DNA of 36,443 nucleotides from Anaerolineae bacterium (GTDB lineage: Bacteria; Chloroflexota; Anaerolineae; Anaerolineales; Villigracilaceae), in the NCBI GenBank assembly GCA_003130845.1, contig QEXW01000026.1:1-36443 (forward strand), read 5' to 3'. Shown here in pieces: positions 1-7,859 of this stretch. Under the pieces are notes generated by a model. The model made no database searches and was not told the origin of the DNA. It saw only the letters and a list, made by a program, of their open reading frames with translations. Numbering within the stretch: position 1 is the first letter of the stretch; each line of letters starts with the position of its first letter. A program made the position numbers and the translations under genes.

Positions 1-2165
1 ACCCATACCCGCCGGTGTATATCTCGCCGGAGAGCGGAAAAACTCAGAATCAAAAAATGCCCGTCAGGGCATTAAGACCAGGGCGGAACCACGACCCAGC
101 GGCCAGAGCGCGGCCTCAGAATCAAAAAATGCCCGTCAGGGCATTAAGACTTTGTACTCGTCAGCGGTCAGAGGGGGACGCTGTTGCTCAGAATCAAAAA
201 ATGCCCGTCAGGGCATTAAGACGCCAGTACCCCATCCAGCTGGTCGTAGCCCTGGAGCTCAGAATCAAAAAATGCCCGTCAGGGCATTAAGACGAACTAA
301 AGCGGCTCGATGCCGAGTACAAACAGGCCAAGCTCAGAATCAAAAAATGCCCGTCAGGGCATTAAGACTCAATTTCCTTTCAAGCGCGCGCAGATAGGCA
401 AAATAGCTCAGAATCAAAAAATGCCCGTCAGGGCATTAAGACCAAAGGCCAATCTGTTACTTGATTCATTGGCACAGAAACTCAGAATCAAAAAATGCCC
501 GTCAGGGCATTAAGACACACTAATGTACGCAATGCGTTGATACAATGATACACTCAGAATCAAAAAATGCCCGTCAGGGCATTAAGACATCGGCCGCCAG
601 CCGCTCCAGGAGCGGGAGCGCCGCTCAGAATCAAAAAATGCCCGTCAGGGCATTAAGACCATATCGCCGCAGGCCTGGGCTGCGGTCTGGCGGACACTCA
701 GAATCAAAAAATGCCCGTCAGGGCATTAAGACCGATCCTGCGGCGAGAGCGGCCCGGCTACCACTATCTCAGAATCAAAAAATGCCCGTCAGGGCATTAA
801 GACACGCCTGCGCTTCCTGACGCAATCGCCGCCACCGATTGCCTCAGAATCAAAAAATGCCCGTCAGGGCATTAAGACATATTCCATAGCGTGCTATATT
901 CTTGATGTATGCGGTGCCTCAGAATCAAAAAATGCCCGTCAGGGCATTAAGACCACCACTTGCACAGCGCGCGGTGTAAATCCCGATGGCAAGCTCAGAA
1001 TCAAAAAATGCCCGTCAGGGCATTAAGACTCTAATAAATCCAAGCATTGCATTTTCGCAAGGGATTCTCAGAATCAAAAAATGCCCGTCAGGGCATTAAG
1101 ACAGCACGGAGCGCTCCCAGCAGTCAATCATGCTACCCCTCAGAATCAAAAAATGCCCGTCAGGGCATTAAGACAACGAGAAAGAACCAAGCCGCCAGCC
1201 AGACAAGACCGCCTCAGAATCAAAAAATGCCCGTCAGGGCATTAAGACTCGACTGGCCCTCCACCGAATCATGAGAACAGTACAACTCAGAATCAAAAAA
1301 TGCCCGTCAGGGCATTAAGACGTCGGAAGCATATAGCTTCCGGTCTAACACCTCCCTCAGAATCAAAAAATGCCCGTCAGGGCATTAAGACATAATTTCT
1401 CTGTAATTAGTTCCACAACCAAATAAACAATCTCAGAATCAAAAAATGCCCGTCAGGGCATTAAGACCCCGACAAGTCGCACAAACGATAGGCCGCGATG
1501 CGCTCTCAGAATCAAAAAATGCCCGTCAGGGCATTAAGACTCAAGAAATTGACCGACTGTCTCCCCTTTGACACTCAGAATCAAAAAATGCCCGTCAGGG
1601 CATTAAGACCCAAGGCGGCACGACAACCCAGCGACCTGCGCGCGGTCTCAGAATCAAAAAATGCCCGTCAGGGCATTAAGACCAGGAAAATAGAATTTTC
1701 CTTCTATGACCGCATCAAAGCGGCTCAGAATCAAAAAATGCCCGTCAGGGCATTAAGACTCACAGAGTGAATCAATATATTGCAAGAATGTAATTAGCTC
1801 AGAATCAAAAAATGCCCGTCAGGGCATTAAGACACTTCCGGTGTAGTCGGAAGCGTATAGCTTCCTGTCTCTCAGAATCAAAAAATGCCCGTCAGGGCAT
1901 TAAGACTTCGTAAAACTTGGGTTTGTTGATTTGATGTTCATTCGCTCAGAATCAAAAAATGCCCGTCAGGGCATTAAGACACAGCAGAGGGATTCGGTAC
2001 ATCCCCTGCTGCACTTGCTCAGAATCAAAAAATGCCCATCAGGGCATTAAGACGGATTGTCACCCATATACTATGCCCACCAGAGCATCAAGCCCCCCTG
2101 TATCCGCTACATCCGCCCCATCCGCTACAGCCAGAATCAAAAAATGCCCGTCAGGGCATTAAGAC
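1..2165 (+). CRISPR. CRISPR array, 36-bp repeats, truncated by the window start
   Basis: There are 29 recognisable copies of a 36-bp repeat that begins CTCAGAATCA and ends ATTAAGAC, with an inner hairpin AATGCCC/GGGCATT around a GTCA loop. Copies start at 43, 115, 187, 258, 333, 407, 481, 553, 624, 697, 768, 843, 918, 994, 1067, 1139, 1213, 1286, 1356, 1432, 1505, 1574, 1647, 1724, 1798, 1871, 1945, 2018 and 2130. Spacers are 33-41 bp. The first 27 look identical; 2018 has one change in the loop and 2130 differs in its first two bases. Bases 1-2 are probably the end of another repeat, so the array continues to the left. Repeat decay at the right end and an ATTAAGAC 3' end (a plausible 8-nt crRNA handle) suggest plus-strand transcription with the leader off-window. 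No cas gene is in the window, so the subtype is not assigned. Confidence 0.98.
2059..2094 (+). repeat. Decayed CRISPR repeat relic
   Basis: An ungapped alignment to the array repeat gives 22 of 36 matches. Most are in the 3' part, where ATGCCC, CAG, GCAT and AAG are kept. Only 5 bp separate it from the repeat ending at 2053, so a spacer may have been lost by deletion. It is followed by about 35 bp before the next repeat, which is normal spacer length. This fits erosion at the leader-distal end. Confidence 0.6.
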
Positions 2166-2631: not shown

Positions 2632-3330
2632 ATGCCCCTACTTCCTGCTCCTGCGATTGAAATCACTGCCGACCAAGTATTACTAGGCCAGGGAGCCAAC
2701 CCAAACGTCATTCGTGCCAGAAGCCCCCGGCTCATCACCGCCGCCGAACACGCCCTAGCCGAGGGCCTGCCCCTGCTCACACCGCGCATCCTATACCAGC
2801 AGCTGAACATCCAAAAAATACAACCAGAACAGATTGTTCTGGAAAACAACCACACCCTCAGTGGGCGATTACCGGCACAGCAATTAAGACACGCCCAATC
2901 CATCATCGTCATCCTCTGCACCGTAGGCGAAGCCATCGAAAAACGCAGCCTGCACTACCTAGAAAGCAACCCCCTACACAGCTTGGCATTATATGGCGTT
3001 GGCTCCGCCGCCGTAGAAGCCCTTAGCACCGCCGTCTGCCAACACTTTAGCGCCCAGGCCGCCCGCCACGGCCTGCTCACCACCATCCCCCTCAGCCCTG
3101 GCCTAGAGGGTTGGTCAATCGAACAGGGACAACCAGAAATCTTCCGCATCCTCGATGCAGCCCAAATCGGCGTAGAACTGCTCCCCTCCGGCCTCATGCG
3201 CCCCATCAAATCCATCTCCCTGGTCATTGGCATCGGCCAACACTTCGACTCAGCCGCCCGCATCTGCCACTTTTGCGCCAAACGTTTTGGCTGTGCCTTT
3301 CAAAAACAGCATGCCCCCACTGACCGTTGA
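2632..3330 (+). CDS. Vitamin B12-dependent methionine synthase activation-domain-like protein
   Basis: A 232-aa protein resembling the stand-alone relatives of the MetH reactivation domain, which bind corrinoid proteins or help their reductive reactivation. The middle (about 85-130) has the family pattern of an ILCTVGEAIE stretch followed by a Gly/Ala-rich helix (YGVGSAAVEAL), then a PLSPGLEGW stretch near 155-163. The C-terminus has three cysteines, C212, C215 and C221 (CX2CX5C), within ICHFCAKRFGC, typical of these small homologues. It overlaps the next gene by 20 bp, and the two likely form one operon; the neighbour is the ATPase expected to reactivate corrinoid proteins. No methyltransferase or corrinoid protein gene is adjacent. 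The ATG at 2632 lacks a clear Shine-Dalgarno. Family call is good; the exact partner is unknown. Confidence 0.8.
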   Translation: MPLLPAPAIEITADQVLLGQGANPNVIRARSPRLITAAEHALAEGLPLLTPRILYQQLNIQKIQPEQIVLENNHTLSGRLPAQQLRHAQSIIVILCTVGEAIEKRSLHYLESNPLHSLALYGVGSAAVEALSTAVCQHFSAQAARHGLLTTIPLSPGLEGWSIEQGQPEIFRILDAAQIGVELLPSGLMRPIKSISLVIGIGQHFDSAARICHFCAKRFGCAFQKQHAPTDR

Positions 3331-5107
3331 CTTCCAACCCCTCGGACGTCGCACCCAAATCGAACGCGGCGCAACCCTGCTCCAAGCCGCTCAAGACGCC
3401 GGCGCGGAACTGCTCGCAACCTGTGGCGGACAAGGAACATGCGGTGACTGTCGAATACGCATTGCCTACGGCACCGTTTCACCCCTCACCCCTGAAGAAC
3501 AAACAGCCCTCACCCCAACCGAACAAGCAACCGGTTGGCGGCTGGCCTGCCAATGTGTGCCGCTCAGCGATGTCAAAATCGAAATCCCCCCCACCAGCCT
3601 CAGCACCCCCCAAAGACTATCCATCGAAGGCCAAGCCGAAGAAATACAACTCGACCCGCCAATAACAGCCACAGAGATAAACATCACCCCCCCCTGCCTG
3701 ACAGACCTGCGCGCCGACTCAACCCGCCTGCTAGAGACCCTGCAACGCCCCAACCTACACCTTAGCCGGCATCTGCTCACTCACCTCTCAGAACACCTGC
3801 GCCGCCAGCACTGGCAAGCCTGCCTAGCTCTACGCAAAGACCAAATCATCGCCGTTCTCCCCCCTGGCAGCCCCCTGCTCGGCCTAGCGGTTGACATTGG
3901 CACAACCAAAGTAGCCGCCTACCTCGTCAACCTACAAACCGGCCACACCCTCGCCAAAACTGGCGCCATGAACCCACAAATCGCCTACGGCGAAGATGTC
4001 ATCAGCCGCATTCACTACGCCAACACCCACCCCAACGGACGCCACATCCTACAGCACCGCATCATCGAAAGCATCAACCAACTCATCCAAGAACTGACCG
4101 CTCACGCCCAAATCCGCGCGGAAACCATCGTCGAAGCAGTCATCGTCGGCAACACCGTCATGCACCACCTATTTGCCGGACTACCCGTCGAACAACTAGG
4201 AACATCACCCTATCTACCCGCCGTTGCCGAACCACTCGAATTCCCAGCCGCCGAAATCGGGCTGGCCATCGCCCCCGCCGCTTACATATACCTGCCCCCC
4301 AACATCGCCGGCTATGTGGGCGCCGACCATGTAGCCATGGCGCTGGCCGCCGAAATACACCATACCACCCGGCGTGTCCTTGCTGTAGATATTGGCACCA
4401 ACACCGAAATCAGCCTAGCCGCCAACGGACGCCTGCGTTGCTGCTCCTGCGCCAGCGGCCCGGCCTTCGAAGGCGCCCACATCACCTTTGGCATGCGCGC
4501 CGCCCCAGGCGCCATTGAAAAAGTGAGAATAGGAGAAACCATCCAAATCGCCACCATCGAACACCGCCCACCGGTTGGCATTTGTGGCTCTGGCTTGCTC
4601 GATGCCGTTGCCGAACTCACCCGCGTCGGCGCCCTCGAAAAACGCGGCAACTTCAACCCCCAACATCCCCTCGTACAAACCCGGCAAGGCAAACGCCAAA
4701 TCATCCTCTCCCCAGCCGAAGCCAACCCGCACAAACAAGACATCAGCCTCTTGCGCACCGACATCAACCAAATCCAACTCGCCAAAGCCGCCATCCGCAC
4801 CGGAATAGACATCCTCCTGACCGAAGCCGGCCTGCACCCCACTGATTTAGATGAATTCATCCTCGCCGGCGCATTTGGAACCTACCTCGACATCGCCTCC
4901 GCCATACGCATCGGAATGTTCCCCCCCCTGCCACGAGAAAAATTCCGCCAAATCGGCAACGCCGCCGGCGCAGGCGCACGTCAAATGCTCCTCTCACACA
5001 ACCGGCGGCGCCAAGCGCTGGACTTTGCCCGCCATAGCGAATACATCGAACTCAGTACACACCAAGACTTTCAGACAAAATTCACACAAAACCTGCTGCT
5101 CGGCTAG
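3311..5107 (+). CDS. RACo-like corrinoid activator (2Fe-2S ferredoxin + ASKHA ATPase, DUF4445 type)
   Basis: A 598-aa protein of the reductive activator of corrinoid proteins family, which uses ATP to return an oxidised Co(II) cofactor to active Co(I). An N-terminal ferredoxin-like domain (about 1-95) has C38, C44, C47 and C80 (CX5CX2CX32C), the plant-type 2Fe-2S spacing. After a linker, the ATPase region shows AVDIGTTK (193-200), GNTVMHHLFAGL (280-291), AVDIGTNTEIS (358-368), the CASGPAFEGAHITFGMRA region (380-397) and a C-terminal AGAFGTYLD block. I chose the ATG at 3311 because the ferredoxin fold begins right after it. An upstream in-frame ATG (3227) would add 28 residues lying inside the previous gene. 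There is no strong Shine-Dalgarno, so translation is probably coupled to the upstream gene. The stop codon at 5105-5107 abuts the next promoter's -35 box. Confidence 0.9.
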   Translation: MPPLTVDFQPLGRRTQIERGATLLQAAQDAGAELLATCGGQGTCGDCRIRIAYGTVSPLTPEEQTALTPTEQATGWRLACQCVPLSDVKIEIPPTSLSTPQRLSIEGQAEEIQLDPPITATEINITPPCLTDLRADSTRLLETLQRPNLHLSRHLLTHLSEHLRRQHWQACLALRKDQIIAVLPPGSPLLGLAVDIGTTKVAAYLVNLQTGHTLAKTGAMNPQIAYGEDVISRIHYANTHPNGRHILQHRIIESINQLIQELTAHAQIRAETIVEAVIVGNTVMHHLFAGLPVEQLGTSPYLPAVAEPLEFPAAEIGLAIAPAAYIYLPPNIAGYVGADHVAMALAAEIHHTTRRVLAVDIGTNTEISLAANGRLRCCSCASGPAFEGAHITFGMRAAPGAIEKVRIGETIQIATIEHRPPVGICGSGLLDAVAELTRVGALEKRGNFNPQHPLVQTRQGKRQIILSPAEANPHKQDISLLRTDINQIQLAKAAIRTGIDILLTEAGLHPTDLDEFILAGAFGTYLDIASAIRIGMFPPLPREKFRQIGNAAGAGARQMLLSHNRRRQALDFARHSEYIELSTHQDFQTKFTQNLLLG

Positions 5108-6875: not shown

Positions 6876-7859
6876 CTAGCGCGCCAACAAACCGACCATT
6901 TCGTAATACTCCATGTTCACTTCGCGCTTCCCGGCCACCACATCTTCCAGCGGCACATACTCAATCCCGCGCCCTTGCAAACCGGTCATCACACCGCTCT
7001 TGCCGGCCATCAACGCATCTACGGCTTTGACACCCATGCGCGAGGCCAACAGCCGGTCATACGCCGTGGGAGACCCACCGCGCTGAATATGCCCAAGAAT
7101 GGTAACACGGGTTTGAAAACCGACATCCATCGCCTCCAACTGCTTGGCCAGGTCCTCGGTCTTATGGCCCGAACCTTCGGCGTTAATGATAAAAGCATGC
7201 GTCTTGCCACGCCGATAGGCGCCTTCCACCGTTTGGGCAATCTCCTCAATCGTCGAAGGACGTTCCGGAATAAGCACCATTTCGGCGCCGCACACAATAC
7301 CGGCCATCACGGCCAAATACCCCGAACTGCGCCCCATGGTCTCCACCAAAAAGACGCGCCCATGCGAAGAAGCGGTATCGCGCAATTTATCCACCGCATC
7401 CATAATCGTGTTCATGGCCGTATCTACGCCGATAGCCATGTTCGTTCCCCAAATGTCATTGTCAATACTGCCCGGCACGCCCACCACTTTCACACCCTGC
7501 TTGTGCAAAGCCAGGGCGCCGGTCAGCGAACCATCCCCGCCAATCACAATCAGCCCATCAATGCCGGCCTCGTTCATACGCCGGATGGCCTCCCGCTGCC
7601 CGCGCGGTTCGCGAAACGCCAGCGAGCGGCGCGTTTGCAGAATGGTGCCACCACGCAACAAAATGCCACCCACATCGCGCGCACCCAACTCGCGAAATTC
7701 GCCATTCATCAGGCCTTCGTAACCGTTATAAATGCCGATGACGCGCACACCATGCGCTAATCCAGCTCGCACCACAGCGCGAATACAAGAATTCATGCCA
7801 GGGGCATCACCACCCGAGGTGAGAACGCCAATTTTGGTTGGTTTTTGTTCAAGTGCCAT
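6876..7859 (-). CDS. pfkA: ATP-dependent 6-phosphofructokinase
   Basis: A 327-aa PFK that phosphorylates fructose 6-phosphate in glycolysis. Visible motifs are GVLTSGGDAPGMN (11-23), GGDGS (107-111) and PGSIDND (129-135) with catalytic D133. Glycine at the second GGDG position and in PGSIDND (not PKTIDND) points to ATP rather than pyrophosphate as donor. MGRSSGYLA and GHIQRGG, which contact substrate, are also present. The ATG at 7859 has GGGAA upstream and gives a normal N-terminus; an earlier ATG would add 32 residues lying within rnz. It begins 4 bp after the rnz stop codon, so the two form an operon. Length is normal for a bacterial PFK. Confidence 0.96.
   Translation of the reverse strand: MALEQKPTKIGVLTSGGDAPGMNSCIRAVVRAGLAHGVRVIGIYNGYEGLMNGEFRELGARDVGGILLRGGTILQTRRSLAFREPRGQREAIRRMNEAGIDGLIVIGGDGSLTGALALHKQGVKVVGVPGSIDNDIWGTNMAIGVDTAMNTIMDAVDKLRDTASSHGRVFLVETMGRSSGYLAVMAGIVCGAEMVLIPERPSTIEEIAQTVEGAYRRGKTHAFIINAEGSGHKTEDLAKQLEAMDVGFQTRVTILGHIQRGGSPTAYDRLLASRMGVKAVDALMAGKSGVMTGLQGRGIEYVPLEDVVAGKREVNMEYYEMVGLLAR

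What the first reader, a model, noticed from the sequence alone, without database searches (positions are those of the whole stretch)
79..1646. Two CRISPR spacers encode nearly the same peptide and differ almost only at codon third positions
The spacer at 79-114 and bases 1611-1646 of another spacer align without gaps over 36 bp with 28 matches. Seven of the eight mismatches fall at offsets 3, 9, 12, 15, 24, 27 and 36, all multiples of three; the eighth is at 29. Read in that frame they encode QGGTTTQRPERG and QGGTTTQRPARG. This is what purifying selection on a protein-coding gene would leave. The two spacers therefore look as if taken independently from one gene in two diverged relatives of the same virus or plasmid. 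Shared acquisition position in two targets, about 21 spacers apart in the array, suggests a preferred site or a persistent target lineage.
Basis: partly seen in the sequence, partly recalled or inferred. Interest (0 to 1): 0.78.

Follow-up and report, generated by a model that had tools for sequence, protein, structure and literature searches.

The report
Two spacers against one capsid motif
Two entries in a bacterium's CRISPR memory were taken from the same short, conserved stretch of a virus coat-protein gene in two different viruses; this is ordinary CRISPR immunity, but it shows which gene and which strand are attacked.

Summary
Spacer A (79-114) and spacer B (1610-1646) match at 28 of 36 positions, and 7 of 8 mismatches fall in one codon phase. 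No pair in 2,153 shuffled spacer sets scored as high.

QGGTTTQRP is the antisense reading. On the minus strand both spacers read PR[S/A]GRWVVVPP(W), a motif of the phage major head protein (PHROG 267). In 34 of 34 viral contigs encoding GRWVVVPPW (arginine as CGN) it lies inside that gene; 8 of the 34 built the test profile.

The array is most likely type III-A: two same-family genomes carry a near-identical repeat with csm genes beside it. The crRNAs would then be complementary to capsid mRNA. The window's own csm genes were not found.

Two phages with this capsid gene were met at different times. Capsid pairs this similar at the site have a median of 51% protein identity, so one virus lineage is not shown. 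A general preferred site is not supported: 0 of 173 spacers from other same-repeat arrays encode the motif. Homologous spacer pairs do recur in the other long arrays, including six spacers on one short region.

The parts
43..2165 (+). CRISPR array: 29 repeats of 36 nt (CTCAGAATCAAAAAATGCCCGTCAGGGCATTAAGAC), 27 perfect; the contig starts inside the array and the leader side is missing
   Evidence: only place of this repeat in its genome
79..114 (+). Spacer A (36 nt); minus strand encodes PRSGRWVVVPP of a phage major head protein; newer of the two by inferred array polarity
1610..1646 (+). Spacer B (37 nt); minus strand encodes PRAGRWVVVPPW; older of the two by inferred array polarity
1322..1355 (+). 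Spacer of a second homologous pair, overlapping 1834-1870 with 23 of 25 matches; minus strand can read EVLDRKLYASD
1834..1870 (+). Partner of 1322-1355; minus strand can read DRKLYASDYTGS; target gene not found
2018..2165 (+). Trailer end: repeats with 1 and 2 mismatches and a decayed repeat inside the 76-nt 'spacer' (2059-2094, 22 of 36; best elsewhere in the rest of the window 21 of 36)

Best explanation
The array is the memory of a type III-A CRISPR system in a bacterium related to Anaerolineae (Chloroflexota) MAGs. At two times its ancestors captured the same roughly 36-nt stretch of the major head protein gene from two different tailed phages. That stretch encodes the conserved motif PR[S/A]GRWVVVPPW, so the two spacers differ almost only at wobble positions. 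Transcribed from the plus strand and cut by Cas6 after the repeat hairpin, each crRNA carries the antisense of capsid mRNA. It would let the Csm complex bind that transcript and switch on Cas10 and CARF effectors. Shown: the spacers' likeness, the gene and strand by homologues, a III-A operon beside the near-identical-repeat array in G026, and a csm3 on the array-side contig in G022. Inferred: that the window's array is or was served by III-A, its polarity, and interference itself.
For: 28 of 36 matches, mismatches in one codon phase; 0 of 2,153 shuffles. The motif lies in the head gene in 34 of 34 contigs, 26 of them outside the test profile. PHROG 267 major head protein E 3e-49 to 4e-79 in 7 of 7 head-gene proteins scanned. 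55% identity over 90% of the query to the annotated capsid or head proteins of phages D6E and AP45. Of 201 spacers only A and B stand out in a peptide comparison with the phage contigs (45.2 and 37.1 bits for B and A; next 29.9; best reversed control 30.8), and only these 2 of 201 contain the motif. A genome of the same class holds a head gene with PRPGRWVVVPPW, profile E 1.9e-116. The G026 array with a near-identical repeat lies beside cas2, cas1, cas6, csx15, CARF genes and csm5-csm1; csm3 in G022 on the contig whose end holds one repeat. The repeat hairpin sits near the 3' end in plus orientation. Decayed repeats lie at the right end.
Against: No exact or near-exact protospacer was found in viral contigs, genome contigs or phage records: best 29 of 36 for A and 29 of 37 for B. 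No Csm1 hit and only weak, below-cut-off Csm3 hits in the window's own genome, so the array may be an orphan or its operon unassembled. L024, the perfect peptide match to B, was fetched with a pattern made from that peptide, so its score is not independent.
Confidence: 0.9

Rival explanations
1. The spacers come from a gene on the plus strand that encodes QGGTTTQRP[E/A]RG, as first read.
For: The plus frame is equally conserved between the two spacers (11 of 12 residues).
Against: In 34 of 34 contigs with GRWVVVPPW the plus-equivalent frame is short (median 47, maximum 120 codons) and never matches the head-gene profile, while the minus frame is the head gene.
Confidence: 0.02
2. One evolving phage lineage: the phage escaped spacer B by silent changes and the host re-took the same site as spacer A.
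For: Same site, almost only silent changes, and the shared residues P-R-[S/A] before the motif, found exactly in only one contig of the viral collection (L024 and L060 are that contig).
Against: A-B divergence (28 of 35) equals that between head genes with a median of 51% protein identity, so no close lineage is needed; type III tolerates mismatches (recalled), so silent escape is a weak pressure.
Confidence: 0.2
3. Acquisition or selection favours this very site (hot window), so independent captures land on it.
For: Right ends identical. Other same-repeat arrays have near-coincident homologous pairs (offset 0 in L113, offset -2 between L114 and L115) and a cluster of six in L113.
Against: 0 of 173 spacers of other same-repeat arrays encode the capsid motif, and no other genome of the order and class samples has it in a spacer. 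The site ranks 41 of 272 windows (all 104 genes) or 90 of 272 (72 genes lacking WVVVPPW) for DNA conservation within the head gene, so it is not the best-conserved target (gene set picked partly by motif).
Confidence: 0.15
4. Spacer B is a duplicated, mutated copy of spacer A, or the reverse, within the array.
For: Similar length, shared right end.
Against: Spacers are not translated, so copying errors would not sit at codon third positions, and both resemble natural head-gene sequences.
Confidence: 0.01

Closest known systems
Type III CRISPR arrays with transcript-complementary spacers (PMC7515739, Thermus, 2020; PMC8482600, strand-bias survey, 2021; passages read)
   Same: crRNA complementary to phage mRNA; spacers kept by selection for transcript targeting; cas1 without reverse transcriptase in the relative's operon
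   Different: Here it is inferred from two archived spacers in a fragmented genome assembly, not from an infection or many mapped spacers; the window's own csm genes were not found
Spacers on a conserved capsid gene shared by several phages in pink berry aggregates (PMC10370329; passages read)
   Same: Host spacers match one capsid protospacer in more than one phage; the capsid gene is commonly targeted and diversifying
   Different: There two spacers are reverse complements of one sequence; here two diverged spacers of the same orientation lie in one array
PHROG 267 major head protein (Pfam Phage_capsid_4 and P22_CoatProtein)
   Same: Spacer-encoded peptide equals the GRWVVVPPW segment found in members of this family
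   Different: Only 11-12 residues are known from each target

Membership tests
CRISPR array | Regular identical repeats with unique spacers of similar length | tested here: met
   29 repeats of 36 nt, 27 perfect; 27 spacers of 33-41 nt, besides the cut first spacer and a 76-nt stretch holding a decayed repeat
Type III-A system | csm1-csm5 operon adjacent to the array | tested here: inconclusive
   Met in same-family genome G026 with a near-identical repeat; csm3 on the array-side contig in G022; own genome has no Csm1 hit and only weak Csm3 hits that lie in a Cmr locus; the leader side is cut off by the contig end
Type III-A system | Spacers antisense to target transcripts | tested here: met
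   For A and B only: both are antisense to the head gene, given plus-strand array transcription, which is inferred (relative's operon, hairpin, decayed end)
Type III-A system | No PAM; flank must not pair with the 5' handle | not testable with these tools
   True flanks unknown: no exact protospacer found
PHROG 267 major head protein as target | Protospacer lies in a gene of this family | tested here: met
   By homologues: 34 of 34 motif-bearing contigs match the head profile; 7 of 7 head proteins scanned are PHROG 267; exact targets not held
Same virus lineage for both targets | Head genes closely related | tested here: inconclusive
   137 comparable pairs (27-29 of 35): median protein identity 51%, range 26-95%

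The most novel reading that the evidence does not exclude
Arrays with this repeat, type III-A where the operon could be seen, repeatedly re-capture the same short gene windows from successively diverged phages (capsid motif here; a membrane-peptide-like window hit by six spacers in G022), so each array holds an evolutionary time series of a few favoured targets. Either acquisition or selection after acquisition would favour these windows.
Probability: 0.25. Interest if true: 0.6.

Novelty: new member of a known kind. Interest (0 to 1): 0.38.

Why it matters
It shows that spacer-to-spacer comparison inside one array, read as codons, can point to the target gene even when no matching phage has been sequenced. 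Because the codon phase fits a frame on each strand, homologues are needed to decide the strand. It links an uncultured Chloroflexota host to phages with a PHROG 267 capsid. The recurrence of homologous pairs in other same-repeat arrays suggests a usable record of host-phage coevolution.

Tried and rejected
Plus-strand gene: rejected. Chance similarity: rejected. Self-target or resident prophage: the wobble pattern occurs only in the array, and the head-protein profile finds nothing in the own genome at E 1e-10 (8 of 400 order genomes have a match). Selection for the best-conserved site: not supported. Reverse-transcriptase acquisition: the relative's Cas1 is 361 aa and matches Cas1-type models only; the own genome's single Cas1 hit lies in a type I-C locus followed by an array with a different repeat. 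Exact protospacers: none in viral contigs or genome contigs; the array as a query gave 13 phage records, all with E of 0.6 or more. Other spacers against the capsid phages: in the best rows shown, no spacer but A and B exceeds the best reversed control. Targets of other homologous pairs: the membrane-peptide pattern gave 35 contigs; the peptide was re-read in 22 of them and by eye none continued like the spacers. PFWACRPT gave 2 contigs, where the motif frame is short (55 and 45 codons); in one (L203) a 497-codon frame covers the other strand. A codon-restricted DRKLYASD pattern gave none. The I-C array (19 spacers) has no homologous pair (best 9.5), but is too small to serve as a contrast. 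Four paper searches, of which I saw the listings, and passages of four papers showed no report of codon-phase spacer pairs within one array; no wider claim is made.

Full report
What is there. The window begins inside a CRISPR array of 29 repeats of 36 nt (27 perfect), the only place of this repeat in its genome. Spacer A is 79-114; spacer B is 1610-1646, one base longer on the left. They match at 28 of 36 positions with mismatches at offsets 3, 9, 12, 15, 24, 27, 29 and 36. Against 2,153 dinucleotide-preserving shuffles of 28 window spacers (27 whole ones and the cut first one; the 76-nt one left out), the best shuffled pair scored 16.5; A/B scored 17.5 and a second pair (1322-1355 with 1834-1870, 23 of 25 overlapping bases) scored 20. 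Seven or more of eight mismatches in one of three phases has p about 0.008.

Which strand is coding. Mismatches at every third base fit two frames, one on each strand, whose wobble positions coincide. The minus frame gives PRSGRWVVVPP and PRAGRWVVVPPW. A codon pattern for QGGTTTQRP in the viral contigs gave 15 contigs. In 12 of 15 the opposite strand holds a head-protein gene; in 3 (L005, L011, L013) the opposite frame does not match the head profile. A pattern for GRWVVVPPW with arginine as CGN gave 34 contigs, 12 of them shared; 34 of 34 carry it inside a gene matching the head-protein profile. Eight of these had built the profile, so 26 are outside it, and several contigs are near-identical. 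The family is PHROG 267, major head protein, for 7 of 7 head-gene proteins scanned; an eighth protein, from L005, had no hit. Pfam Phage_capsid_4 or P22 coat matched 6 of the 7. Phages D6E and AP45 carry a relative annotated as capsid or major head protein, 55% identical to the query. Of 201 spacers compared as peptides with the phage contigs, only B (12 of 12, 45.2 bits) and A (10 of 11, 37.1 bits) stand out; the next is 29.9 and the best reversed control 30.8. The top contig L024 had been fetched with a pattern for that peptide, so this score is not independent. A direct motif test finds it in A and B alone among the 201.

How different the two targets were. Among the 45 of 104 head genes where the site was read, 92 of 990 pairs match at 28 or more of 35 positions. 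The 137 pairs with 27-29 matches have a median protein identity of 51%, range 26-95%. The spacers' likeness therefore mostly reflects the motif, and the two phages may be only moderately related. The shared P-R-[S/A] before the motif argues for a somewhat closer tie: a pattern for PR[S/A]GRWVVVPPW hit one viral contig and no genome contig. One genome of the same class (G659) has a head gene with PRPGRWVVVPPW; its DNA matches A at 26 of 36 and B at 26 of 37, with mismatches again mostly at wobble positions. No sequence found is a true protospacer: best matches are 29 of 36 for A (L194) and 29 of 37 for B (L024, L185, L196).

System and orientation. A genome-collection scan with the repeat found nine stretches in five named MAGs, titled Chloroflexi, Anaerolinea, Anaerolineae or Anaerolineales. 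Contig lengths identify G022 as JAIOAQ and G026 as DYID01, an Anaerolinea sp.; both are in the window's family. In G026 the array lies beside cas2, cas1 (361 aa, only Cas1-type models matched), cas6, csx15, CARF-nuclease genes and csm5-csm4-csm3-csm2-csm1: type III-A. In G022 a csm3 lies on the contig whose end holds one such repeat. The window's own genome gave no Csm1 hit. Its Csm3 hits are weak and lie in Cmr genes; that contig also holds type I-C genes, the genome's single Cas1 hit and an array with a different repeat. The leader side of the window's array is beyond the contig end, so its operon is either unassembled or lost. Plus-strand transcription is inferred from the relative's operon, the hairpin near the repeat's 3' end and decayed repeats at the right end. 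On that reading both crRNAs are complementary to capsid mRNA. Passages of PMC7515739 and PMC8482600 report that type III spacers are biased to transcript-complementary orientation, in Thermus through selection rather than acquisition.

Preferred site or persistent target. Of 201 spacers in arrays with this repeat (28 window, 47 in G022, 76 in G026, 49 in JACRPQ, 1 in CALGPL), 12 distinct spacer pairs are homologous at a score of 14 or more; a reversed control gave 0. They occur in all four genomes with long arrays: 2 in the window, 7 in G022 (a cluster of six spacers that by eye read into one short membrane-peptide-like segment, plus one separate pair), 2 in G026, 1 in JACRPQ. Several of these spacers hold palindromes, and codon phase alone does not fix the strand, so I claim the antisense orientation only for A and B. 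0 of the 173 spacers outside the window encode the capsid motif. Its DNA pattern is absent from the 399 other genomes of an order sample and present in 1 of 395 others of a class sample, as a head gene and not a spacer (overlapping samples). The site is not the most conserved window of the head gene (rank 41 of 272 over all 104 genes, 90 of 272 over the 72 lacking WVVVPPW; the gene set was partly picked by motif). As an inference without a call: if all 28 spacers came from one strand of a co-linear 40-kb target, a pair within 1 nt would be expected about 0.03 times. The exact coincidence is thus mildly surprising, but it was picked from many arrays. A persistent group of PHROG 267 phages is the simpler account. 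A hot window remains possible, mainly because of the G022 cluster.

Verdict. The finding is a new example of a known kind: spacers, most likely type III, against a conserved capsid gene. A published parallel for shared capsid protospacers is PMC10370329 (passages read).

Noticed in passing
window 1322-1355 and 1834-1870: Second homologous spacer pair with 23 of 25 overlapping matches; both can read DRKLYASD on the minus strand; target gene not found.
   Followed up: partly
L113 (G022:C22), minus strand 265, 489, 1536, 1685, 1909, 2656: Six of 47 spacers overlap on one short hydrophobic-peptide region in diverged versions, an unusual concentration with no convincing target found in viral contigs.
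   Followed up: partly
L114:13136-13172 with L115(-):6094-6131; L115(-):7142-7182 with 7518-7556; L175(-):2924-2961 with L183:3724-3763: Further homologous spacer pairs in same-repeat arrays, with offsets of -2, 10 and -4 nt.
   Followed up: partly
L207 (G659:C1:1705162-1705187): A same-class genome carries a head-protein gene with PRPGRWVVVPPW, probably a provirus of the kind the spacers target.
   Followed up: partly
G000:C55 (L124, L125): The own genome has type I-C and Cmr (III-B/C) genes followed by an array of repeat GTCGCCTTCCCCCCGGAAGGCGTGGATTGAAAC that runs to the contig end.
   Followed up: partly
window 2059-2094 and 2322-2357: Decayed repeat-like stretches (22 and 23 of 36; best in the rest of the window 21), suggesting erosion at the trailer end.
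   Followed up: no
window 2632-5107: Beside the array: a RACo-like (corrinoid-activating, ferredoxin-domain) protein at 3227-5107, preceded by a 232-aa ORF without a Pfam hit; ordinary chromosomal genes.
   Followed up: no
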